A stretch of DNA of 64,000 bases from Actinoalloteichus fjordicus (GTDB taxonomy: Bacteria > Actinomycetota > Actinomycetes > Mycobacteriales > Pseudonocardiaceae), in contig NZ_CP016076.1 in the NCBI RefSeq assembly GCF_001941625.1, positions 6,618,001 through 6,682,000 of the forward strand, in the 5' to 3' direction. The position numbers were made by a program, and so were the translations under genes. Positions 147 to 24,806 of the stretch are shown in pieces; the first letter of the stretch is position 1, and every line of letters starts with the position of its first letter. The notes below the pieces were generated by a model. That model was not told the DNA's origin and did no database searches. It saw nothing but the letters and a program-made list of their open reading frames with translations.

Positions 147-1760
147 CTAGAAGCCGAACAGATCCTCTTCCGACTCGGTCTCCTCCGCCTGACCGGCCTC
201 GGGGCCGAGGATCATCCGGTCACCGCCGCTGCCGTCGAACGGCACCGCGTCGTAGACCCGGCTGACGTCCTCCTGGTCGAGTCGGGGGCCGCTGGGCAGC
301 AGGCCGAGGATCGACTCGGGCCCGGCGTCCACTGTGGAGCCCTCGGCGGCCAGGTCGAGCCCGACCACGTGCGCCATGTCCGGAATGCCATAGATCACGC
401 CTCGATCGGAGACGAAGTGCAGCGGCCCGCGCTCGAAGCCCTCCTCGCCGGTGGCGGCACGCACCACGGCGGCGTTGCCGGGCGGCATGAAGAAGTAGTC
501 CACGTCCGGGCTGCTGGACAACGAGACGGCGCGCATCTCGACGTCACTGTCCTCATCGGACTTCGGCAGCACGACCTCGTCGCCCAGGGTGACACCGATG
601 CGCTGGCCGTCCGAGCCGTCCCAGGTGAAGCAGGACATCTCCGACTCGCTGAACGAGACCGGCGTCGGCAGCTGCTCGGGAAGGTCCGCGACGTCGATCG
701 GGTTCTCGGACTCCTCCATCTGAGTGAGCTGATCGGACTGGATGCCCGGCGTCGCGACGGTGAGGTCCTGATCGGCCCGGATCAGGTCCGCGACACCCTC
801 GGGGATCCGCTGGTAGCCGTCCGCCAACAGGACGTAGTAGCCCCGCGCGCCCGCAGCGGTCTCGGAGAACGCCACCGTCCCGACCTGAGCGTCCGACTGG
901 TCGCTGAGCTGGACCGGGTTCGGCAGCGGGCTGCCCGCGCCCGGGATCTGCGGGGCGCGGAAGGCGCCTACCTCGGGGATCGCGTTCAGCAGACCGAGGC
1001 TGACGGCGCGCGGCGTCGGGTTGGAGTTCAGCACCGCCGCGGCCGCGACCGGGTCGTTCTCCACGTCGATGGGTGCCCGGACCACGCCCCGGGAGCCGCC
1101 GTCGTCGCCGGACGGACGATAGACCAGGTAGTGCCGGTCGTTCTCCGCCGAGTGGACCAGCAGCGCCTGCTCGTCCGTCATCGGCGTGCCGGGCATGTCC
1201 TCGACGCCCGCCAGGACCGTGGTCTCCGGCCTGGCCACCGCCTCCGCGTCCGGGTGGCTGGCGTCCAACTCGGCGACGTCGCACAGTCCCCAACTCGGCA
1301 CGATGCGCCGGTCCGAGCCCGGCATGTAGTCCGGGGCCCCGATCAGTCCGGTGAGCTGCCCGCGCGGAATGTCGGCGAGGACGTCGTCGCCGATGACCTC
1401 CATCTCACTCTTGGAGTCGGCACCGAGCTGCATCTGCAGCAGCCGGGCAGAGGCCATGTTCGTCATCGGGATGAGCTGCATCCCGTCGTTGTCCACCGCG
1501 ACGTAGACCCCGCCGGACGGTTCGGACACGACCACCGCGCCCGCGGCAGGCGGCTGCGCGCGCGGGGAGATGATCCCGAAGATGAGGAATCCGAGCAGGC
1601 CGACCACGGCCAGCGCGACCCCGGCTCCGACCGAACGCATGTGCGTGCGCATCGGATCGTGCAACATCACCGCGTCCTTGCGCACCAGCGCCGACTGCAT
1701 TCGTCGCAAAACGAAGCGATAAGCCTGGACCTGGGACTTGGTGGTAGGTGTTGACGGCAT
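147..1760 (-). CDS. eccB: Type VII secretion protein EccB
   Basis: EccB is a membrane core component of the ESX (type VII) secretion complex, with a short cytoplasmic N-terminus, one transmembrane helix and a large extracytoplasmic repeat domain. The 537-residue protein has a basic N-terminus (SKSQVQAYRFVLRRMQSALV, typical of EccB), one hydrophobic helix at about residues 45-66, and a long acidic extracytoplasmic region, with an acidic tail ending in EEDLFGF. The length fits the family (about 480-540). It is transcribed away from eccE across a roughly 200-bp gap, and the rest of the ESX locus probably lies left of the window. The ATG at 1760 was chosen because the conserved N-terminal motif begins just after it. 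Confidence 0.96.
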   Translation of the reverse strand: MPSTPTTKSQVQAYRFVLRRMQSALVRKDAVMLHDPMRTHMRSVGAGVALAVVGLLGFLIFGIISPRAQPPAAGAVVVSEPSGGVYVAVDNDGMQLIPMTNMASARLLQMQLGADSKSEMEVIGDDVLADIPRGQLTGLIGAPDYMPGSDRRIVPSWGLCDVAELDASHPDAEAVARPETTVLAGVEDMPGTPMTDEQALLVHSAENDRHYLVYRPSGDDGGSRGVVRAPIDVENDPVAAAAVLNSNPTPRAVSLGLLNAIPEVGAFRAPQIPGAGSPLPNPVQLSDQSDAQVGTVAFSETAAGARGYYVLLADGYQRIPEGVADLIRADQDLTVATPGIQSDQLTQMEESENPIDVADLPEQLPTPVSFSESEMSCFTWDGSDGQRIGVTLGDEVVLPKSDEDSDVEMRAVSLSSSPDVDYFFMPPGNAAVVRAATGEEGFERGPLHFVSDRGVIYGIPDMAHVVGLDLAAEGSTVDAGPESILGLLPSGPRLDQEDVSRVYDAVPFDGSGGDRMILGPEAGQAEETESEEDLFGF

Positions 1761-16233: not shown

Positions 16234-16396
16234 GAACGGTTCTTCGATCCCTGGCTTTCGGAGTTGCGCGGGGCCGACGCGGCGATCTGCGGCGTTGTCG
16301 TCGGTCACCATGGCTCCGCCATGGCTCTCTCCTCCGCCTGGCAGCTCATTCACGCCGATCCCCGCTCACGACTCCAGAGGGACCGAAGACAGGCTC
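16234..16396 (+). mobile_element. MITE-like element, copy A
   Basis: A 163-bp copy of the dispersed family described at 18495, 20953, 35462 and 42774. The right end (GGGACCGAAGACAGGCTC) is well kept. The left end is diverged (GAACGGTTCTTCGATCCC). The core with GCGGCGATCTGCGGCG and GTCGGTCACCATGG is shared with the other copies. It carries no transposase. Confidence 0.8.
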
Positions 16397-16542
16397 TAAC
16401 AGCCCAGCTCGACGCACGATGCCACGTCGAATGATTACCGTCCATGATCGAAGTTCACCCGAAAGAGTGGGATCACACTGCGATTACCCCTTGGCCGGTG
16501 CGGTTCCGGTGGCCGGTAGTGGTGGGGGAGAATCCTGGTCCA

Positions 16543-17565
16543 ATGGGCGAGGACCGATTCGAACTGCTCATCACCGTGGTGGTCGGCGTCGAGGACGACC
16601 GGCGGGCTCGTGCGGCCTGCCAGGGCCTGCTGTCCCTGGTCGGCGGCCGGATCGTCGAGTCAGGAGACTGCTCGGCCGAGGAGCCGGGCTGCTGGTCGGT
16701 CACGATCCGCAGACCGGCGGACGTGACGGCGGGCGACGACGAGAGCGTCACCCTGAGCCGGGCGATCCGCCGGTTCCTGCGCCGACTCGGTCCCGAGTAC
16801 GGCACCAGTCGGGTCTCCTGCGAGCCGCCGACGGCCTGGACCGTCCTGGACGATCCCGAACTGCTCGGCGCCATCGTGCCCTCGGGCGAACGGCTGCTGG
16901 TGGAGGCGTGGTCCGATGACAGCGCGCTGCCCGACGTCGAGCCGGACCGTCCTGCGGACTCCGAGGCCGGGTTCGGCTTCCCCAGCGTCGACCAGGACGA
17001 GACGCCTGCGGTCGCATCGACGGTGCGGCTGCGCGTGGAGGTCCAGGCCGAGCGGCAGGCGGGCGCCCATTGGCAGGCCCGCGCCGTGGCGAGCAGGCTG
17101 GCGAGCAGGGCGACGATCCTGCGCACCGAGTCGGCCGACGGGCGGACTTTCGCGGTGACCATGGACCTCGGCAGCAGGCCGGGTCCGCCGGACGAGGTCG
17201 CCCGCGAGGCCGCGGCGACCCTGGGCAAGTCGGGCTGGTCCCGACTCCGCGTGGCCGGCGAGTCGACGATCACGGAGTGGGCGGCGGCCTCTCCCGGTCG
17301 CAACGGACTCCTCGGTCTGCGGCTCGCGGCACGACAGCTCACCGAGTCGGATGCCGACGACCTGGCGGACGCCGACGGCGTCGACGAACAGTCCGACGAC
17401 TTCTCGACGGCAGAGGGTGGTCGACGTCCGGCGGCGGAGTCGGCGGAGGCGACGCGGGGAGGCCGGGCGGGCTCGTCGACGCCGTCGAAGGCAGAGCTGC
17501 TGTCGGTCGAGCATCGACGGTCGCTGCCACGAGACGAACAGCGCTGGTCGTGGTGGTCGCAGTGA
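16543..17565 (+). CDS. Hypothetical protein with two related alpha/beta domains
   Basis: A 340-residue cytosolic protein that I do not recognise. It seems to hold two similar modules. One is at about residues 4-120 (RFELLITVVVGVEDDRRARAACQ...GGRIVESG). The other is at about 165-265 (VRLRVEVQAERQAGAHWQARAVAS...RATILRTESADG). Each begins with a strand, then a helix rich in Ala/Arg, then a second strand, like an ACT- or ferredoxin-like duplication; this is a visual impression only. The tail (about 275-340) is acidic then basic and looks disordered. The frame opens at 16444, but the ATG at 16543 starts where the folded part begins and follows GGGGGAG, so it is preferred. It lies just after MITE copy A. 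Confidence 0.75.
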   Translation: MGEDRFELLITVVVGVEDDRRARAACQGLLSLVGGRIVESGDCSAEEPGCWSVTIRRPADVTAGDDESVTLSRAIRRFLRRLGPEYGTSRVSCEPPTAWTVLDDPELLGAIVPSGERLLVEAWSDDSALPDVEPDRPADSEAGFGFPSVDQDETPAVASTVRLRVEVQAERQAGAHWQARAVASRLASRATILRTESADGRTFAVTMDLGSRPGPPDEVAREAAATLGKSGWSRLRVAGESTITEWAAASPGRNGLLGLRLAARQLTESDADDLADADGVDEQSDDFSTAEGGRRPAAESAEATRGGRAGSSTPSKAELLSVEHRRSLPRDEQRWSWWSQ

Positions 17566-17662: not shown

Positions 17663-18508
17663 ATGAAAGGGCGACCGACGATCCGACACCGGAGACTGTG
17701 TGCACGGCTTCACCGGATGCGGAATGACACCGGCATCGAGATCGAGCAGGTCATGGCGGAGATGGGCTGGTCACGCAGCACGGCGCGGCGGAAGGAGAAC
17801 GGGACGACGTCGTTGAGCGTCACCGAGGTCCGTGCGCTCTGCGCTCTCTACCGGGCCACTGCGGAGCAGGAGGCCGTCCTGGTGGGGATCGCCGCGAGAC
17901 TCGGCGAGCCCGACTGGTGGCAGCCCTATGCGGCAGGCGCCACGGGCGCCTTCCGGGACTTCCTCGAACTGGAATCGGACGCCAGCGAAGTCCGGAATTT
18001 CGAGATCGACGTCGTTCCCGGCCTGTTGCAGACCGAGGGCTACGTCCGGGCGCTGGTGGAGTCGTGGATTCCGCGGGTCCCCGAGGCGACGGCACACGCG
18101 AGGATCTCCCTGCGCCTGGCGCGCAGACAGCGCCTCCTGACCGGACCGTCGACCCTCTGGGCAATCATGGACGAGGCGGCGCTGCGCCCGCGCATCGTGA
18201 CGGGCCGAGCCTGGCAAGAGCAGACGGCGGCCCTGCTGGAGTTCGCCGATCATCCGAACATCACCCTTCAGGTGCTGCCGTTCTCGGCGGGACCGCATCC
18301 CGCGATCGGGAGCCCCTTCGCGTGGTTGGGTCTGCCTGCGCCCGACCCCGGCGTGGTCCTGCTGGACAACGTCGCAGGCAGTGTCGCCGTCGAGGACGCC
18401 GCGGAGGTGCAACGGTTCCGCAACGCCTTCGACCACCTGCGGGCGATGGCGCTGGCTCCGTCCGACACTCGGTCCTTCCTCGCGACCGCCCTGAGAGCCT
18501 GTCCTTGA
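17663..18508 (+). CDS. XRE-family regulator with DUF5753
   Basis: A 281-residue cytosolic DNA-binding protein. The N-terminal helix-turn-helix (about 8-68, HRMRNDTGIEIEQVMAEMGW then SRSTARRKENGTTSLSVTEV) is followed by a DUF5753 domain (about 100-275, with VVPGLLQTEGYVRAL and FADHPNITLQVLPFSAGPHPAI). Such regulators usually stand next to a small DUF397 gene, which is absent here. The ATG at 17663 is taken over far-upstream starts because it begins the domain and has TATCGT 7 nt before it. The stop codon at 18506-18508 lies inside the terminal repeat of MITE copy B, so the last residues (ACP) are supplied by the element. Confidence 0.9.
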   Translation: MKGRPTIRHRRLCARLHRMRNDTGIEIEQVMAEMGWSRSTARRKENGTTSLSVTEVRALCALYRATAEQEAVLVGIAARLGEPDWWQPYAAGATGAFRDFLELESDASEVRNFEIDVVPGLLQTEGYVRALVESWIPRVPEATAHARISLRLARRQRLLTGPSTLWAIMDEAALRPRIVTGRAWQEQTAALLEFADHPNITLQVLPFSAGPHPAIGSPFAWLGLPAPDPGVVLLDNVAGSVAVEDAAEVQRFRNAFDHLRAMALAPSDTRSFLATALRACP

Positions 18509-18653
18509 TCCCCCTGGAGTCGTGAGCGGGGATCAGCGTGGATGAGCTGAGGCGGAGGAAAGAAACATGACGGAGTTATGTTGACTGACGACAACGCCGC
18601 AGATCGCCGCGCCTGCCCCGCGCAACAGGAAAGTGGGGATTAAAGACACGCTC
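18495..18653 (-). mobile_element. MITE-like element, copy B (between convergent genes)
   Basis: A 159-bp copy in inverted orientation. The ends read GAGCCTGTCCTTGATCCCC (left) and GGGGATTAAAGACACGCTC (right), an imperfect terminal inverted repeat. Flanks are TGA on the left and TCA on the right. The regulator's stop codon falls 11 nt inside it. The TCA beyond it (18654-18656) is the reverse complement of the peptidase stop codon. It may act as a two-way terminator. Confidence 0.85.
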
Positions 18654-20438
18654 TCAGGAGCCCGCCAGCCACGCCGAGGTGACCGGGCCCCAGTTCCCGT
18701 CGGCGTCCTGGGCTCGGACGTGGATCGGATGCCTCCCGGCGGGCAGCCCGGCGATGCTGATGACACCGCCCAGCTCCACCTCGGCGCCGGAGCCCTGCAC
18801 CCCGATGGGCTGCGGAGTGCCGCCCGCCCACGGCGGCGCGTCCAGGTAGACCTCGGCGGCCACCACGTCCTGCGCGGCCGGTCGGTCGACGCCGACCTCC
18901 CCGTAGGCGTCGTCGTCGGCCGTGGCGTGGACCGAGGCCCACCGGCCCAGCGCCCTCGTGCTCGTCACCTCCGACACCGTCGGCCCCAGCGAGAGCGCGT
19001 AGGGCTGCCGCGCCGTCTTCGCCGCGTACAGCAGCGCGTCCCGATTGAGATCCCAGAACATGTCCTGGCACGAGTAGGCCGCGTGGAATCCGGGACATCC
19101 CGAGGCCGAGGAGCCGATCTCGAAGGTGTAGGAGGCGATGCCCAGGGTGTCGTAGGTCCAGTCGTCGGTGGCCCCGGTGACCGCGTAGAGCACCTCGGGC
19201 GGCTGGCCGGTGGTGTAGCCGTTGAAGTGGCTGAGCCGGAAGCCCAGCGACCGCAGTCCCGCGTCGTTGGGCGCCTGCTGTGCCGCGTCGTGCCCCCAGG
19301 GGAAGAGCACCAGATCGCCGGTGGAGTGCAGGGTGATCATGGTGCCGGTGGTGGTCTGCGGCGCGGCGTCGTCCTCGCCGGGACCACGCTGGTCGGGAAA
19401 GAGGCTCTCGATCAGCGTGGCGAGCTGGTCGGTCTCCGGTTCGGAGTTGCCCGCCGGGCCGGGATAGGTCTGTCCACAGGGGTTCGGGCTGGTGCCGACG
19501 CCGCCCCAGCGGGTGTCCCAGTTGCGATTCAGGTCGATGCCGTCGTGATTGGACGACCAGGAGCTGCCCGTCCCGCACTCCGCGACGTTGTTGGCGTGGT
19601 CGACGTTCTTGCGCTGCCAGGCCGGGCTGCTCGACCCGAGGCCGACCTCCTCGATGCCGTCCTCGACGACGGTGACGCCGTCGGGATTGATCTGCGGGAC
19701 CACCCAGATCTCGGTGCCTGCGAGCAGCGTGGTGATCTCGGCGTCCCGTCGATGACCGTCGAGGAGCTCGGTGATGAACCGCCAGGTGAGCTCGCTGGTC
19801 GTGAGTTCTCGCGCGTGGATCTGACCCAGCAGCAGGAACCTCGGCCTCGGCGAGTCCGGGTCCAGGGCACAGTGATCGGCCGCGTCGGCGGTGATGCACA
19901 GCGCGGTGAGTTCGTGGCCCGTCGACCAGTCCTGCTGTCGCCGCCACGAGTCGCCGTACTCGACCTTGCGGACCAGGTCCGGATAGGCGGCGGCGACATC
20001 GTCGGCGAACCGCTGATGACCGGCGACGGTCCGGTAGCCGCCGTAGAACGTCGGATACTCCCGGCCGCCAAGTCGGTCGGGCAGCGGATGCTCGCCCTCC
20101 GAAAGCGGCAGTGCGGCAGGCGCGGCAGGATCGGTCCGAATCGGCTCGAGGCCCGTCGCCGCCAGCTCGTCGGCGTCCTCGGCGACGCCGAGGACGACCA
20201 GGTGATCGCCCTCGCGCCCGACCACCTCGAAGCCCTCGTGAGCGAGCCGCTCGGCGAGGGCGGTGTGCGACTGGTCGCCGACCGGCACCTGAAGGAGCAG
20301 CATCTGATCCCCGACCCCCGGCTGGTCGACGGCGGAGTCCGCCACGGCGACGGCGGCAGGGGTGGTGGCGAGAGAGACGGCCGCCGCGAGGAGCAGCAGC
20401 CCGATCCGTTGTCGGTGAACACGTCTGGCCATGGGCAT
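18654..20438 (-). CDS. Secreted M14-family zinc carboxypeptidase
   Basis: A 594-residue exported metallopeptidase. A signal peptide (MPMARRVHRQRIGLLLLAAA then VSLATTPAAVAVA) is followed by a propeptide-like region and the M14 catalytic domain (about 130-425). Zinc ligands are in GQIHARELTTSE (HxxE) and the later His in TLHSTGDLVLFPWG. The catalytic Glu is in YTFEIGSS. A C-terminal beta-rich module (about 460-594) ends with GRHPIHVRAQDADGNWGPV. The frame is open far upstream, but the ATG at 20438 begins the signal peptide and follows AGGCGG. Substrate specificity is not visible. Confidence 0.93.
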   Translation of the reverse strand: MPMARRVHRQRIGLLLLAAAVSLATTPAAVAVADSAVDQPGVGDQMLLLQVPVGDQSHTALAERLAHEGFEVVGREGDHLVVLGVAEDADELAATGLEPIRTDPAAPAALPLSEGEHPLPDRLGGREYPTFYGGYRTVAGHQRFADDVAAAYPDLVRKVEYGDSWRRQQDWSTGHELTALCITADAADHCALDPDSPRPRFLLLGQIHARELTTSELTWRFITELLDGHRRDAEITTLLAGTEIWVVPQINPDGVTVVEDGIEEVGLGSSSPAWQRKNVDHANNVAECGTGSSWSSNHDGIDLNRNWDTRWGGVGTSPNPCGQTYPGPAGNSEPETDQLATLIESLFPDQRGPGEDDAAPQTTTGTMITLHSTGDLVLFPWGHDAAQQAPNDAGLRSLGFRLSHFNGYTTGQPPEVLYAVTGATDDWTYDTLGIASYTFEIGSSASGCPGFHAAYSCQDMFWDLNRDALLYAAKTARQPYALSLGPTVSEVTSTRALGRWASVHATADDDAYGEVGVDRPAAQDVVAAEVYLDAPPWAGGTPQPIGVQGSGAEVELGGVISIAGLPAGRHPIHVRAQDADGNWGPVTSAWLAGS

Positions 20439-20691: not shown

Positions 20692-20952
20692 ATGGCAGGC
20701 ATCGAAGAGGTTCGGGCGAGCGTGGCACTGGCCAACGAGAGGGTCAATCAGGCACTCGCCGCAGTGGCGTCAGCCGTCGAGGCGACGCAGGACGCACATT
20801 CCATCTTCTCCTCGGCGACGCAGGGCAGTGCCCAGGTCGCGGTGCCACAGGGCCTCGGGATGTTGACGCAGGCAGGCGAGAACCTCACCGCCGCCAACGG
20901 GAATCTCAACGGCTGGGTGGGGTTCGCCGACGAGTACGTCTCACGGCTCTAA
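20692..20952 (+). CDS. Small helical protein, first of a pair upstream of EccC-like ATPase
   Basis: An 86-residue Ala-rich protein predicted to be almost all helix (VRASVALANERVNQALAAVA and LGMLTQAGENLTAANGNLNG). Near its end is WVG followed by FADEYVSRL. The WXG and small helical form recall ESX substrates (WXG100 proteins), although WXG normally lies mid-protein, so this is only suggestive. The ATG at 20692 follows GGAGG by 8 nt; the frame also opens at 20641. It is followed within the locus by a second small helical protein and the large ATPase. The stop codon touches MITE copy C. Confidence 0.8.
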   Translation: MAGIEEVRASVALANERVNQALAAVASAVEATQDAHSIFSSATQGSAQVAVPQGLGMLTQAGENLTAANGNLNGWVGFADEYVSRL

Positions 20953-21105
20953 GAGCCTGTCTTTGACCCTGCTTTCGGAGTTGCGCGAGGCAGGCGCGGC
21001 GATCTGCGGCGTTGTCGTCGGTCACCATGGCTCCCTCCTGTCGCCTGGCAGCTCAGCCACGCTGAGCCCTCGCTCACGGCTCGAGAGGGATCAGAGACAG
21101 ACTCT
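20953..21105 (+). mobile_element. MITE-like element, copy C
   Basis: A 153-bp copy with well-kept ends (GAGCCTGTCTTTGACCC and GGGATCAGAGACAGACTC). It starts directly after the TAA stop of the small helical gene, and lies between the two small genes of the EccC-like locus. The flanks TAA and TCG do not match, so a target duplication is not seen. Confidence 0.85.
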
Positions 21106-21249
21106 CGAAGACTCGTTCGGAGTCGTCAGGGCATCGAGCAGCTGCGGCATGGCGGCGCGGTACGAATCTGACCCGCAGGGCGTCGATGCCCCGGGACAGG
21201 CACGGCGGACACGGCAGTGATCGAGTAGTGGTCGGAAGGTGACGCGGAG

Positions 21250-21501
21250 ATGTCGAGTGTCGAGGACGTGCGTGCCGCGCTGGAGCAGGTCAAGGACGAG
21301 ATCAACCGGGCACGGCTGAGCACGGCCACGGCCCTGCGTCTGGTCGAGGAGGCCCTGGCCATCGTGGCCGAGGTCGAGTCGGATCACCACGAGACGATCA
21401 CCCCGCCGGAGGCGAGCCGCGCCAGAGGAGACCTCGATCGGACCCTCGAGTCGCTGACGGGTTCGGAACAGGCGGTGGATGCGGTGCTCAGCCGGCTGTG
21501 A
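21250..21501 (+). CDS. Small helical protein, second of the pair
   Basis: An 83-residue predicted all-helical protein (MSSVEDVRAALEQVKDEINR and RLSTATALRLVEEALAIVAE). It resembles the protein at 20692 in size, in its helical pattern and in a common ending (VDAVLSRL compared with YVSRL). It lacks a WXG motif. The ATG at 21250 lies about 70 nt before the ATPase gene. The two small genes look like paralogues or partners of the ATPase. The role is unknown. Confidence 0.75.
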   Translation: MSSVEDVRAALEQVKDEINRARLSTATALRLVEEALAIVAEVESDHHETITPPEASRARGDLDRTLESLTGSEQAVDAVLSRL

Positions 21502-21577
21502 TGATCGCAAGTAACGTTGATCTCGACAGGCCGGTGGTCACCGAGCCGACCAGGGAGAGGCGTCACGAGGTGTGCTG

Positions 21578-24424
21578 GTGAACAGGCGAGACGAGCGACG
21601 ACGTCGCATCACGGAGTCCTTCGAGGAGTTTCGGCTGGCCGTGGCTCGCGCCCTCGGAGTCGCGGTCCGGCAGCACACCGCCGCTCAGCAGATTCACGCC
21701 GAACGCATCTTCGAGCTGTGGCTGCGGGACGCGGGTATCGATCGTGCGCTGGTGGACCCGGAGCTGGCCGTCGGGCTGCGCAATCCGGCGCTGGAGACCG
21801 TGGTGCAACGAGCCACGAACGATCGAGACGCGCACTTCGCCGACTGGACGGGCACCGTGCCAGGGGAGCTGGCGAGCCTGGTGGCCCGGTCGGCCCCGGG
21901 CTCGGCCTCCGAGCCGTATCCGGAGTGGCTCGGTTCGCCGGGCAGACGCGACGGCAGTGTCGGCGACGGCGGTGTTCCCGAGCTCTGGCGCATCGGCACG
22001 GCCGTGATGGACAGCGCCCCGGTCCCGGAGCCGTTCCCGGTCGCAGTGCCGCTCCTGGACGGCGCGCATCTGCACATCACGTCGTCACCGGAGTCCAGAG
22101 TCGACGCCGAGAACCTGGTGGAGACGCTGCTGCTGCGCGTGCTCAGCCACTTCCAGCCCGGTCTGGTGCAGGTGCACGTCTGGGACGTCGGCGCGCTCAC
22201 CGGATCGCTGCCGGGCCTGTACCCGCTGACCAGGGCGGGCCTGCTGACCGTGCACGACCCGGCCCGGCTGCATGACCTGCTCGACGAGTTCGCCGAGCAC
22301 ATCCGGCGCATTCACACCAGCGTGCTCGTCGACGGCAGACGCTCGATCGGGGCGCTGCACTCGGAGACCGGCAGACGCCCGGAGCCGTGGCGGGTCGCGG
22401 TGCTCTTCGGCAATCGCACGGCACTGCGCGAGGAGCATCAGCAGAAGCTCCAGCGCATCGCGCGCAACGGGCTCTCCTGCGGTGTGCAGCTCATCATCGT
22501 CGACCTGCCGATCACCGTGAACAGCGCCGTGGAGACGCTCCGGCTCCACGACGATCAGACGGCCCGATGCAGCATGACCGGGCCGCATGCCACGGTCTAC
22601 CTCGATCCGGCGCTGCCGAGGGAACTCGTGCCTCGGGCCTGCAATGCGATCGCCGACGAGCTGCTCACCCGACGCAGCCGGGTCTCCAGCTTCGACGACC
22701 TGCTGCCCAACGAGCCGTGGACCTACCACTCCGCCACCGGGCTCCAGACGCCGATCGGCTACGCCGACGGCGACCCGGTGTACGTGTCACTGGGCGACGC
22801 CTCGCCGCACGCCCTCATCGGCGGGCCGAGCGGCTCCGGCAAGACGAACTTCCTCTATGCGATGCTCGGCGGGCTCGCCGCGCGGTACTCGCCCCACGAG
22901 CTGGAGTTCTACGTCCTGGACTTCAAGGAGGGCGTGTCGTTCGCGCAGTTCGCCCCCGGCCGTCGCGACCCGAGCTGGCTGCCGCACGCGCGGCTGGTGG
23001 GGGTGAACGTCAACGAGGATCGCGAGTTCGGCGTGGCCCTGCTGCGCTACCTCTCCGACGAGATGCGACGCAGGGCCGAGCGCGCCAAGCAGCACGAGGT
23101 GACCAAGCTGGAGGAGCTGCGCGCCGAGGACCCGACGGGCCGGTGGCCTCGGATCGTCGCGGTGATCGACGAGTTCCAGTATCTGTTCGCCGCCAGAGAC
23201 GAGGTGACCAGCATGGCCGCCGCCCTGTTGGAGGACGTCGCACGGCGGGGCCGGTCGCAGGGCATCCACCTGGTGCTGTCCAGCCAGGACGTCTCCGGCA
23301 TCGAGGTGTTCTGGGGCAAGCCCGCGATCTTCGAGCAGTTCACCGTGCGCATCGCGCTCCCGAAGGCGCGCCGGGTGCTCACGGAGGTCAATCAGGCCGC
23401 GATGGAGATCCCGCGCAGGCACGCGGTGATCAACCACGACTCCGGCGTCCCGCACGGCAACGAGGTGGCCCGCATCCCGGACTCCACGGCGCGCGGCACC
23501 GCCGATCGGCTACAGGCCGATCTGTGGCAGCGCAGGCCCCCGGAGCTGACCGAGCCTCGGCTCTTCGACGGCAGCAACACCCCGAAGCTGCGCACGCTGC
23601 CGGACTTCACCCGGTTGGCCGCGCCCGCGACCGGGTCCCGACACGTCCCGGTCGCCCTGCTGGGCCAGGTCATCGACATGGCGGGCAGCGGCGCGGTCGT
23701 ACCGTTGGCGGCCAGTCCCGGCCGCAACATCGCGGTGCTGGGCTCGGTGCAGCGCGATGCGAGCGCGGTGCTCACCGCGGCGGCGCTGTCCCTGGCCAGG
23801 CAGCACAAGGCGGGGACGGTGCGCTTCACGGTGGCGTCGCTGGTGGAGGGCTCGGAGCAGGCGGCGGAGAGCCTGCACGGCGAGCTGAAGGATCTCGAAC
23901 ACCGTGCCGAGATCAAGTATCTCGTGGATGCCAGGGACCTGATCGACGCCACGGCCGACGAGTTGAAGGCCAGACTCTCCGATGAACCGCCCGCCGAAGA
24001 CGAGAAGAAGCTTCCGCACTACCTGCTGCTGTTCGGCGTCGACTCGGCGCACCCTCGGCTGGAGGATCGCGACACAAAGAAGGCCCGCACCGGTCTGGAC
24101 AGCCTCCGGCTGGTGCTCAAGCACGGACCGGAACTCCAGACCCATGTGATCGGCTGGTGGCGCAGTACCGGCAGACTCAAGAGCGCACTGGCGATGGGCG
24201 GGTTGGAGGACATCGGGGCGTGGGTGGCGTTCGACGTGCACGGGCAGGAGCTCGGCAGCCTGGCCGCGAACCAGGTGATCACCTGGTCGCCTCGGCCTCG
24301 ACGCGGCCTGTTCTTCGACCGCTTCCATCATTCCCGGCCGCAGGTCGTCATTCCCTGCGACGCGGGCGAACGAGAGACCCCCGGCCCGATCCCCTCGCCC
24401 GACCCACGGAGTGACGATGACTGA
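21578..24424 (+). CDS. Soluble FtsK/EccC-like ATPase with three ATPase-like modules
   Basis: A 948-residue cytosolic ATPase of the FtsK/SpoIIIE/HerA class. The middle module is complete: Walker A GGPSGSGKT at 415-423, and Walker B VAVIDEFQYL at about 527-536, followed by VARRGRSQGIHLVLSSQD. The N-terminal third (about 150-330) repeats the pattern of such a module (WRVAVLFGNRTALREEHQQK, GLSCGVQLIIVDLP) without a Walker A. The C-terminal third (about 680-900) has a degraded one (AVLGSVQRDASAVLTAAA, YLLLFGVDSA). This inactive-active-inactive layout recalls EccC of ESX systems, but no membrane helix is present. The start is GTG 21578, 7 nt after CGAGG; GTG 21572 is possible. It is coupled to the next gene by overlap. 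Function unknown. Confidence 0.88.
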   Translation: MNRRDERRRRITESFEEFRLAVARALGVAVRQHTAAQQIHAERIFELWLRDAGIDRALVDPELAVGLRNPALETVVQRATNDRDAHFADWTGTVPGELASLVARSAPGSASEPYPEWLGSPGRRDGSVGDGGVPELWRIGTAVMDSAPVPEPFPVAVPLLDGAHLHITSSPESRVDAENLVETLLLRVLSHFQPGLVQVHVWDVGALTGSLPGLYPLTRAGLLTVHDPARLHDLLDEFAEHIRRIHTSVLVDGRRSIGALHSETGRRPEPWRVAVLFGNRTALREEHQQKLQRIARNGLSCGVQLIIVDLPITVNSAVETLRLHDDQTARCSMTGPHATVYLDPALPRELVPRACNAIADELLTRRSRVSSFDDLLPNEPWTYHSATGLQTPIGYADGDPVYVSLGDASPHALIGGPSGSGKTNFLYAMLGGLAARYSPHELEFYVLDFKEGVSFAQFAPGRRDPSWLPHARLVGVNVNEDREFGVALLRYLSDEMRRRAERAKQHEVTKLEELRAEDPTGRWPRIVAVIDEFQYLFAARDEVTSMAAALLEDVARRGRSQGIHLVLSSQDVSGIEVFWGKPAIFEQFTVRIALPKARRVLTEVNQAAMEIPRRHAVINHDSGVPHGNEVARIPDSTARGTADRLQADLWQRRPPELTEPRLFDGSNTPKLRTLPDFTRLAAPATGSRHVPVALLGQVIDMAGSGAVVPLAASPGRNIAVLGSVQRDASAVLTAAALSLARQHKAGTVRFTVASLVEGSEQAAESLHGELKDLEHRAEIKYLVDARDLIDATADELKARLSDEPPAEDEKKLPHYLLLFGVDSAHPRLEDRDTKKARTGLDSLRLVLKHGPELQTHVIGWWRSTGRLKSALAMGGLEDIGAWVAFDVHGQELGSLAANQVITWSPRPRRGLFFDRFHHSRPQVVIPCDAGERETPGPIPSPDPRSDDD

Positions 24425-24806
24425 GTTCGGCTCGGCAGGCGAGCGGTACAAGGAGCTCTGCGGGACGGCCACCGGAGCACTGGCCGCGATGCGCGCACAG
24501 GATCAACGACTCGCGGCAGAGCTGCGCGAGTCCGTGGCCGAGGCGCGCGACGACGTGCTGCGCGCCGCCGACCGGGAGCGGGTCACCCGGCTCATCGTGC
24601 GACTGCGGTGGGAGGCTGCGGTGGAGGCCCTGTGGGATCAGCGCTGGCTGACCATGACGCCGCTGCCCAGACCGGCGGCGGTGGCACTCGCCTACGACCT
24701 CGACGACTGCGAACGGGACATCGACCGGGCCTTCGATCGGCTGGACGAGGCTCTGCGCCGCCGAGGCCTGCTCGACCTGCCGATGCTGACCCGTCGTCGG
24801 TCCTGA
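24417..24806 (+). CDS. Hypothetical protein coupled to EccC-like ATPase
   Basis: A 129-residue, mainly helical protein with no recognised domain. It begins with a helix-rich segment (GSAGERYKELCGTATGALAA) and has a Leu/Arg/Ala-rich C-terminal half. Its ATG overlaps the end of the ATPase gene by 8 nt and follows GGAG by 5 nt, so translation is coupled. It is therefore likely to be a partner of the ATPase. There is no signal peptide or membrane helix. Confidence 0.82.
   Translation: MTEFGSAGERYKELCGTATGALAAMRAQDQRLAAELRESVAEARDDVLRAADRERVTRLIVRLRWEAAVEALWDQRWLTMTPLPRPAAVALAYDLDDCERDIDRAFDRLDEALRRRGLLDLPMLTRRRS

What the first reader, a model, noticed from the sequence alone, without database searches (positions are those of the whole stretch)
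20692..24806. Candidate undescribed system: soluble EccC-like three-module ATPase with small helical partners
The ATPase (948 residues) seems to hold three FtsK-like modules with an intact Walker A/B only in the middle. That recalls ESX EccC, but it lacks membrane helices. Two ~85-residue helical proteins precede it, one with a WVG, and a coupled 129-residue partner follows. No EccB, EccD or EccE lies nearby. It could be a stripped ESX-like or DNA/protein-pumping machine.
Basis: partly seen in the sequence, partly recalled or inferred. Interest (0 to 1): 0.8.

Follow-up and report, generated by a model that had tools for sequence, protein, structure and literature searches.

The report
Stripped ESX-like motor for leader-tagged toxins
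A soil actinobacterium carries a four-gene machine built around a membrane-free relative of the type VII secretion motor, and relatives of its small partner proteins form the front end of many toxin-like proteins with neighbouring immunity-type genes, including DNA-deaminase toxins, so it probably handles or exports a class of antibacterial toxins.

Summary
The operon is real and conserved: A1 (86 aa), A2 (83 aa), a 948-aa ATPase and C (129 aa). AlphaFold2 gives the ATPase three FtsK-like modules; its best PDB match is the three-ATPase part of EccC, and only the middle module keeps Walker motifs. A1 and A2 are homologous; A1 is a helical hairpin. They precede the ATPase in 30 of 30 loci, C follows in 29 of 29, own included. 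The WVG is genus-only; EccB lies in the window, 19 kb away. New point: the A1-type domain ('GSxQ hairpin', my name) also starts scattered toxin-like proteins: BECR-like ones with a conserved downstream gene, and DddA-like deaminases with Imm1. In 120 family genomes, domain and ATPase occur in the same 94. DddA-like proteins carry the hairpin in 46 of 62 cases in ATPase-positive genomes, in 0 of 7 in ATPase-negative ones, where a hydrophobic segment stands instead. Best reading: a T7SS-like motor with its own leader. The membrane route is unknown; nothing was tested in cells. Soluble three-module ATPases with WXG100 partners are published for other lineages; the leader and toxin link were not found in my searches.

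The parts
20692..20952 (+). A1: 86-aa helical hairpin, G[ST]xQ at residues 45-48 in the turn, ends YVSRL
   Evidence: AF2 pLDDT 95.8; ungapped 86-column alignment of 30 with starts chosen by me towards 86 aa; G[ST]xQ in 30 of 30, C-terminal RL in 30 of 30; upstream of the ATPase in 30 of 30 loci, own included
21250..21501 (+). A2: 83-aa divergent paralogue of A1, ends LSRL
   Evidence: hhalign A1 vs A2 96%, E 2.8e-9; present in 30 of 30 loci, own included
21578..24424 (+). ATPase, 948 aa, no TM helix, three FtsK/EccC-like modules
   Evidence: PF01580 E 1.7e-24; AF2 model and Foldseek to EccC 4nh0 E 1e-30
21584..21892 (+). N-terminal all-helical region (residues 3-105, first helix ~50 residues)
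   Evidence: AF2 secondary structure
21983..22603 (+). degenerate N-terminal FtsK-like module (residues 136-342); Walker B position reads FGN
22739..23473 (+). active middle module (residues 388-632)
22820..22846 (+). Walker A GGPSGSGKT
23156..23179 (+). Walker B VAVIDEFQ
23651..24352 (+). degenerate C-terminal FtsK-like module (residues 692-925)
24417..24806 (+). C: 129-aa protein overlapping the end of the ATPase gene; looks helical by eye (no structure was computed); no Pfam family above cut-off
   Evidence: present in 29 of 29 and 79 of 79 loci with downstream sequence
16444..17565 (+). U: conserved neighbour of unknown function, found upstream of A1 in other genera; here separated from A1 by a DUF5753/HTH ORF and a long ORF on the other strand. 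Membership uncertain
   Evidence: tblastn match in 38 of 80 named loci, mostly within 2 kb upstream of A1; no Pfam match

Best explanation
The operon encodes the motor and carrier proteins of a T7SS-like toxin-handling (most likely export) machine. Shown by sequence: a soluble EccC-like ATPase with one live FtsK module; two paralogous small proteins (A1, A2) as its regular companions; the A1-type hairpin as N-terminal leader of scattered toxin-like proteins with neighbouring immunity-type genes; and occurrence of the leader only in sampled family genomes that have the ATPase. Inferred: hairpins pair (A1 with A2, or a toxin leader with a stand-alone hairpin) as EsxA and EsxB do; the C-terminal tail (aliphatic at Y+4 instead of D/E) docks on a degenerate module as the YxxxD/E signal docks on EccC; a ring of ATPases turns ATP hydrolysis in the middle module into engagement and threading of the toxin; C is an adaptor. 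The membrane conduit is unknown: possibly the resident ESX pore, possibly one not yet recognised.
For: A profile of operon A1 proteins alone finds 16 further places in the own genome at E <= 0.1 (12 at E <= 0.001, best 4.6e-8), but matches only 5 of 296 genomes drawn from the phylum at E <= 0.001, two of them known to have the ATPase (own, G049), three weak (1.8e-5 to 4.4e-4). With the broader profile A5, built partly from 16 of those own-genome domains, the own genome has 34 matches. C-termini: DddA-like E 1.6e-18 in one protein; PBECR1 only weakly in one, E 0.0083, below cut-off. Immunity-type genes: 30 of 42 GSxQ ORFs of >=190 aa have downstream ORFs in one homology cluster (~115 aa where shown; 14 of 43 ORFs printed, some out-of-frame shadows); 9 of 9 tested genes downstream of DddA-like toxins are Imm1, while the one tested downstream of a BECR-like toxin matched no family. 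Same 94 of 120 genomes have ATPase and domain. Tail: D/E at the fourth residue after the conserved C-terminal position in 29 of 29 WXG100 controls (Y there in 28), in 0 of 30 A1, which all have L (Y there in 23). Fold.
Against: No membrane gene is part of the conserved four-gene unit. Recurrent flanking families include an ABC-transporter ATPase (17 of 80 loci; the family is broad, so orthology is not shown), an oxidoreductase (11) and others; an ABC ATPase/permease pair lies 3.6-6 kb beyond C in the window; I did not test a link. Every operon-bearing genome sampled also has EccB, so independence from ESX is not shown. Two distant ATPase relatives sit in conflict-type gene neighbourhoods. Many operon genomes show only 1-2 hairpin matches, so the core may have a non-toxin role. 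The 94-of-94 match is partly trivial because A1 lies beside the ATPase. The DddA comparison has only 7 negatives from 3 genera, related by descent; those types partly cluster in a poorly supported tree. 16 of 62 DddA-like proteins in positive genomes had no detected hairpin (10 too short an N-terminus, 6 other), and one of the 46 (L291) matches only in part. hhalign of A1 to WXG100 gives only 27%; the Foldseek search with A1 has no hit at E <= 0.001. No wet data.
Confidence: 0.6

Rival explanations
1. The ATPase complex is only a soluble adaptor that delivers GSxQ toxins to the ordinary ESX (T7SSa) channel; it is an accessory to ESX, not a separate system.
For: EccB is in 119 of 120 family genomes, including all 94 with the ATPase; in this genus EccB lies about 16-19 kb from A1 in three of three genomes; A1 aligns with WXG100 in register.
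Against: 26 of 120 genomes lack the ATPase while EccB is missing from only 1 of the 120, so ESX does not imply it. GSxQ proteins lack the D/E of the YxxxD/E motif seen in the WXG100 set. In three other genomes that I compared (G018, G024, G025) the nearest listed EccB is over 1 Mb from the ATPase; the rest were not compared.
Confidence: 0.2
2. An intracellular conflict or abortive-infection system: the hairpin is an effector-associated adaptor domain that holds toxins on a FtsK/HerA-like sensor until invasion releases them.
For: Distant ATPase relatives sit with Hsp70/TPR/GrpE (Rhodococcus plasmid) or VWA/CARF/PP2C/kinase genes (Caballeronia plasmid); one operon with many scattered effectors resembles effector-associated-domain systems (recalled); matches to mad8 and SspH exist but cover the ATPase domain only.
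Against: Neighbouring Imm1 or immunity-like genes are typical of delivered polymorphic toxins; related deaminases carry a hydrophobic, signal-like N-terminus where the ATPase is absent, which suggests that they are meant to leave the cytoplasm.
Confidence: 0.15
3. A DNA pump or chromosome-handling machine (FtsK/TcpA-like), unrelated to toxins.
For: FtsK motor domains also match by fold (2iut E 2.9e-13, 6t8b).
Against: EccC ranks far above FtsK (E 1e-30); Pfam shows no FtsK gamma domain; the partners are paralogues of a toxin leader.
Confidence: 0.04

Closest known systems
ESX/T7SSa motor EccC with EsxA/EsxB (WXG100)
   Same: three FtsK modules, best fold match 4nh0; tandem paralogous small helical proteins beside the motor; in the profile alignment the turn glycine and the C-terminal Tyr fall in the same register
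   Different: no TM helices; only the middle module is live; no WxG in the turn; L/I/V instead of D/E at Y+4; no EccB in the operon (EccD, EccE not searched)
Mobile WXG100 / three-module YueA-EssC-like ATPase operons (Zhang 2012, PMC3482391 Table 1 note 6; Type III-A CoCoNuT extension, PMC11090510; passages seen)
   Same: three modules with only the middle active; no TM (CoCoNuT form); two small WXG100-type proteins (CoCoNuT form); helical N-terminal region
LXG toxins of T7SSb with small WXG100-like partners (abstracts in listings; details recalled)
   Same: N-terminal helical targeting domain, C-terminal toxin, immunity gene next door, small helical partner sometimes encoded upstream (L139 and some others)
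   Different: shorter (~85 aa) leader related to the motor's own partner proteins; no EssC/YukB-type membrane motor
DddA-like (SCP1.201) deaminase toxins with Imm1 (PF14428/PF14430)
   Same: toxin and immunity families met
   Different: N-terminal domain is the GSxQ hairpin; Burkholderia DddA is delivered by the T6SS (PMC7901873, abstract and passages seen)

Membership tests
EccC (T7SSa motor) | three tandem FtsK-like ATPase modules | tested here: met
EccC (T7SSa motor) | N-terminal transmembrane helices | tested here: not met
   no hydrophobic segment (maximum KD19 1.57); N-terminal region is helical, residues 3-105
EccC (T7SSa motor) | score over the NCBIfam EccCa/EccCb cut-offs | tested here: not met
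   92.7 vs 509.15 and 77.4 vs 346.55 bits
EccC (T7SSa motor) | operon with EccB, EccD, EccE, MycP | tested here: inconclusive
   none recognised in the four-gene unit; EccB 19 kb away belongs to a separate ESX locus; EccD, EccE, MycP not searched
WXG100 (EsxA/EsxB) | ~100-aa helical hairpin | tested here: met
   A1 model; CFP10-ESAT6 chains are among the Foldseek rows but not significant (E 1.9-2.1, TM 0.60-0.62), so this is a generic fold
WXG100 (EsxA/EsxB) | WxG in the turn | tested here: not met
   3 of 30 A1 have WxG, and in the window it lies in helix 2; 0 of 30 A2
WXG100 (EsxA/EsxB) | YxxxD/E export motif | tested here: not met
   D/E at Y+4 in 0 of 30 A1; in 29 of 29 WXG100 controls (Y in 28)
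WXG100 (EsxA/EsxB) | profile similarity to WXG100 | tested here: inconclusive
   hhalign 27% (A1), 2.9% (A5), 1.0% (A2); A1 and A5 in register; no Pfam WXG100 hit
Mobile three-module soluble T7SS-like ATPase operons | three modules, only the middle with Walker A/B, no TM | tested here: met
Mobile three-module soluble T7SS-like ATPase operons | WXG100 partner | tested here: not met
   GSxQ hairpins instead; a WXG100 is annotated near the Caballeronia relative
Polymorphic toxin system (for the GSxQ fusions) | shared N-terminal trafficking domain, variable C-terminal toxin, adjacent immunity gene | tested here: met
   shared domain and two C-terminal types; Imm1 in 9 of 9 tested; for the BECR-like type the toxin call is weak and the downstream family unnamed
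Polymorphic toxin system (for the GSxQ fusions) | toxin leaves the cell and acts on others | not testable with these tools
   needs secretion and competition assays

The most novel reading that the evidence does not exclude
A membrane-anchor-free relative of type VII secretion with its own leader code (GSxQ turn, then an aliphatic residue instead of D/E at Y+4) is the dedicated delivery route for DddA-like deaminases and BECR-like toxins in Pseudonocardiaceae, independent of ESX; it would then be a distinct secretion or delivery type that uses an unrecognised conduit.
Probability: 0.3. Interest if true: 0.9.

Novelty: new variant of a known kind. Interest (0 to 1): 0.72.

Why it matters
It ties a published but uncharacterised class of soluble, middle-active EccC-like ATPases to a concrete substrate class and gives a testable targeting code. 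It proposes how many actinobacterial DddA-like deaminases (the enzyme family behind DddA-derived mitochondrial base editors) may be delivered, supplies a leader-swap comparison between genomes with and without the motor, and bears on how a T7-type motor could work without its own membrane parts.

Tried and rejected
Considered and set aside: WVG as a WXG signature (genus-only, in helix 2 not in the turn). Defence-library hits mad8, SspH and HerA match only the shared FtsK domain. DUF6244: weak in 3 of 30 A1; the genome search for it rang nowhere, controls included, so it says nothing. C has no usable family or PDB match. Viral contigs: 600 stretches matched a pattern, none encodes a relative. 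No Rfam hit in 16-26 kb; the promoter/terminator scan was uninformative. Clustering of flanking ORFs was swamped by shadow ORFs of GC-rich DNA; U was followed up, the ABC-transporter, oxidoreductase and other clusters were not. PHROGs: the ATPase matched two FtsK/SpoIIIE-like families, one of unknown function and one terminase, the small proteins nothing. PDB profile search with A1: best a flagellin, E 0.0024. The Foldseek search with A1 had no hit at E <= 0.001. Paper searches on this link listed no description of the leader or of this operon in Pseudonocardiaceae; I saw listings and, for six papers, passages; subscription papers are mostly not held, and Anantharaman et al. 2012 (PMC4104200) could not be read, so it is known to me only through PMC11090510.

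Dropped rows and biases: for the DddA comparison 74 loci were scanned; one (L264, G030, truncated, ATPase-negative) had no usable ORF; L209 duplicates L223; L139, L192 and L207 were preselected through the hairpin; without these four, 62 ATPase-positive proteins remain (46 hairpin, 10 short, 6 other). The Fisher value 1.7e-4 was computed on 49 of 65 vs 0 of 7, with those three still in, and ignores kinship; the 22 genera of hairpin proteins also refer to the 49. The profile was iterated on the same N-termini (42 of 62 without iteration). Of the 10 DddA-like matches in ATPase-negative genomes 7 were judged (one of G032, the one of G391 and the G030 fragment not). Loci were picked by me from listed matches, not at random; the hydrophobicity threshold (KD19 > 1.9) is mine. 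Start codons of A1, A2, ATPase and C in relatives were chosen by my rules. WXG100 controls: of 32 candidates L333 was dropped for lacking WxG and L329 and L335 were left out, so 29 were used. The 80 named loci are the best of 495. The number 42 is my own tally of ORFs >=190 aa among the 54.


Full report
What is there. The window lies at 6,618,001-6,682,000 of a 7.12 Mb one-contig genome. At 20,692-24,806 (+) are four genes: A1 (86 aa), A2 (83 aa), a 948-aa ATPase and C (129 aa, overlapping the ATPase by 8 nt). Pfam sees one FtsK_SpoIIIE domain above cut-off, in the middle of the ATPase (E 1.7e-24, residues 399-574), and nothing above cut-off in A1, A2 or C. A PDB sequence search puts EccC first (4nh0, E 2.8e-27).

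Three modules, one alive. AlphaFold2 on 29 aligned homologues (mean pLDDT 83.9, pTM 0.67) shows a helical N-terminal region (residues 3-105) and three alpha/beta modules with the same order of elements. Foldseek's best match is the cytoplasmic part of Thermomonospora EccC (E 1e-30, 964 columns), above EssC, FtsK and TcpA; the low TM-score (0.40/0.44) and rmsd of 16.6 say that the modules are placed differently. Profile comparison: middle vs EccC D1/D2/D3 99.6/98.8/98.3%; N module vs the protein's own middle 80% but at most 2.7% vs EccC modules; C module vs EccC D2 55%, D3 35%, D1 0.1%. Walker A is intact in the middle in 29 of 29 (28 GGPSGSGKT, 1 AGPSGSGKT), Walker B DEF in 29 of 29; the commonest variants printed for the outer modules have neither. 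No segment looks membrane-spanning.

The small genes. In 30 of 30 loci (own included) A1 and A2 lie upstream of the ATPase, and C lies downstream in all 29 with sequence there. In 80 named loci from a second collection (best 80 of 495, overlapping in species with the first), 73 of the 78 with upstream sequence have both hairpins and 5 show one; C is in 79 of 79 with downstream sequence. A1 and A2 are homologous (hhalign 96%). A1 aligns over 86 columns with invariant G45, Q48, R85 and L86; its model is a clean hairpin with G[ST]xQ in the turn. WxG is in 3 of 30 A1, all of this genus.

Not simply WXG100. Against 29 WXG100 proteins of the same bacterial family, A1 aligns in register (turn glycine, tyrosine 37-38 residues on) but at only 27% probability; A5 gives 2.9% and A2 1.0%. 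Four residues after the conserved C-terminal position stands D or E in 29 of 29 WXG100 (Y there in 28) and L in 30 of 30 A1 (Y there in 23); in the mixed alignment A5 (23 rows, 16 of them orphan domains) it is L, I or V in 21 rows. CFP10-ESAT6 appears in the fold search without significance, and nothing there reaches E 0.001. Works like Esx: plausible. Member of WXG100: not shown, with two defining motifs failed.

The toxin link. A profile of operon A1 proteins alone matches 18 places in the own genome at E <= 0.1, 16 of them neither A1 nor A2, 12 of those at E <= 0.001, but 5 of 296 genomes sampled from the phylum at E <= 0.001: the own genome, G049, which has the ATPase, and three weak ones. 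The orphans typically have the domain at or near the N-terminus, a Pro/Ser/Thr-rich linker and a C-terminal domain; some end soon after the leader. One C-terminal domain is DddA-like (E 1.6e-18); many others form one family with only a weak BECR hint in one member (PBECR1, E 0.0083, below cut-off). Of 42 such ORFs of at least 190 aa, 30 have a downstream ORF in one homology cluster, ~115 aa in the examples shown, the pattern of an immunity gene; the one tested in Pfam has no family. For 12 of 12 DddA-like toxins examined the next ORF overlaps the toxin gene, and 9 of 9 tested are Imm1. A stand-alone 83-aa hairpin gene precedes the own genome's DddA-like toxin, and similar ones were found beside some others.

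Coupling to the ATPase. In 120 genomes of the family (Pseudonocardiaceae, judged from the named relatives; the family name of those genera is recalled), 94 have the ATPase (E <= 1e-60) and the same 94 have a hairpin match; 26 have neither. The positive side is partly trivial, because A1 lies beside the ATPase; the informative part is the absence of any orphan match in the 26. DddA-like domains occur in 60 of 120 genomes, 5 of them without the ATPase. Adding three preselected proteins (49 of 65) Fisher's P is 1.7e-4, ignoring kinship; those 49 come from 22 genera, the 7 from 3, and the 7 partly cluster in a poorly supported tree.

Surroundings and wider relatives. An ESX locus is not absent: EccB lies at about 240-1751 (-) of the window, an EccC and two WXG100 genes about 5-12 kb to its left, and the two close relatives show a similar EccB-A1 spacing of 16-18 kb. 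EccB is in 119 of 120 genomes, including all 94 with the ATPase, so ESX accompanies the operon but does not require it. A conserved gene U lies upstream of A1 in 38 of 80 loci; an ABC-transporter family recurs in the flanks of 17, untested further. Beyond the family the ATPase is rare: 4 of 396 phylum genomes at E <= 1e-45, the own genome included. A Rhodococcus plasmid relative sits with Hsp70, TPR and GrpE genes and an 86-aa hairpin-like protein with GSSQ and YSSSL; Caballeronia and Helicobacter plasmid relatives have small proteins nearby, one annotated WXG100, the former among VWA, CARF, PP2C and kinase genes.

What is known. Zhang et al. 2012 (PMC3482391, passages seen) note 'solo WXG' with a distinct ATPase of three HerA/FtsK domains, only the middle active, as mobile T7SS versions in several non-actinobacterial lineages, and list Imm1 with SCP1.201 deaminases. 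The CoCoNuT paper (PMC11090510, passages seen) describes EssC homologues without TM domains, only the central domain active, with two WXG100 proteins, suggests defensive secretion by a different mechanism, and cites Anantharaman 2012, not held. My searches listed nothing on a GSxQ leader, on its link to toxins, or on this operon in Pseudonocardiaceae; the library lacks most subscription journals.

Mechanism. Most likely (0.6): A1/A2 and toxin leaders are Esx-like carriers that an EccC-like ring recognises through their C-terminal tails and pulls with its one live module, with C as adaptor. The parts, their conservation, the leader-toxin fusions and the co-occurrence are shown by computation; pairing, docking, ring formation, export and the conduit are inferred. 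Rivals: accessory to ESX (0.2), intracellular conflict system (0.15), DNA pump (0.04). The corrections made on re-checking did not change these odds.

Verdict. A new variant of a known kind (stripped T7SS-like motor), with a new leader and toxin repertoire. Interest 0.72.

Noticed in passing
window 16254-16400 (+), 18494-18660 (-), 20949-21100 (+): Three copies of a ~150-bp interspersed repeat (80-95% alike in the matched parts); one copy fills the unusually long gap between A1 and A2 (297 bp here, 228 and 170 bp in the two close relatives, 47 bp or less in the other 27 loci).
   Followed up: partly
window 240-1751 (-): EccB of an ESX locus that continues to the left of the window, with an EccC and two WXG100 genes.
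   Followed up: partly
window 16444-17565 (+): Gene U, no Pfam family, kept upstream of A1 in 38 of 80 named loci but displaced here.
   Followed up: partly
window ~28.4-30.7 kb (+): ORFs that look like an ABC-transporter ATPase and a membrane permease lie 3.6-6 kb beyond C; an ABC ATPase family recurs in the flanks of 17 of 80 named loci. Synteny or link not tested.
   Followed up: no
L304:12388-12999: In the Rhodococcus plasmid relative the gene after the ATPase encodes a protein ending in a strongly hydrophobic tail, so a membrane-anchored partner may exist in that branch.
   Followed up: no
L300:4172-5251 (-): In G049 the A2 position holds a 359-aa ORF: A2-like N-terminus plus a long Pro/Arg-rich extension.
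   Followed up: no
L302:3245-4077: Three small tandem ORFs follow a distant ATPase relative; weak matches to the hairpin profile (E 0.003-0.02).
   Followed up: no
L134:9244-9714, L175, L203 and others: Several hairpin ORFs end soon after the leader, and some matches contain stops, as if decaying or remodelled toxin genes; left as found.
   Followed up: no
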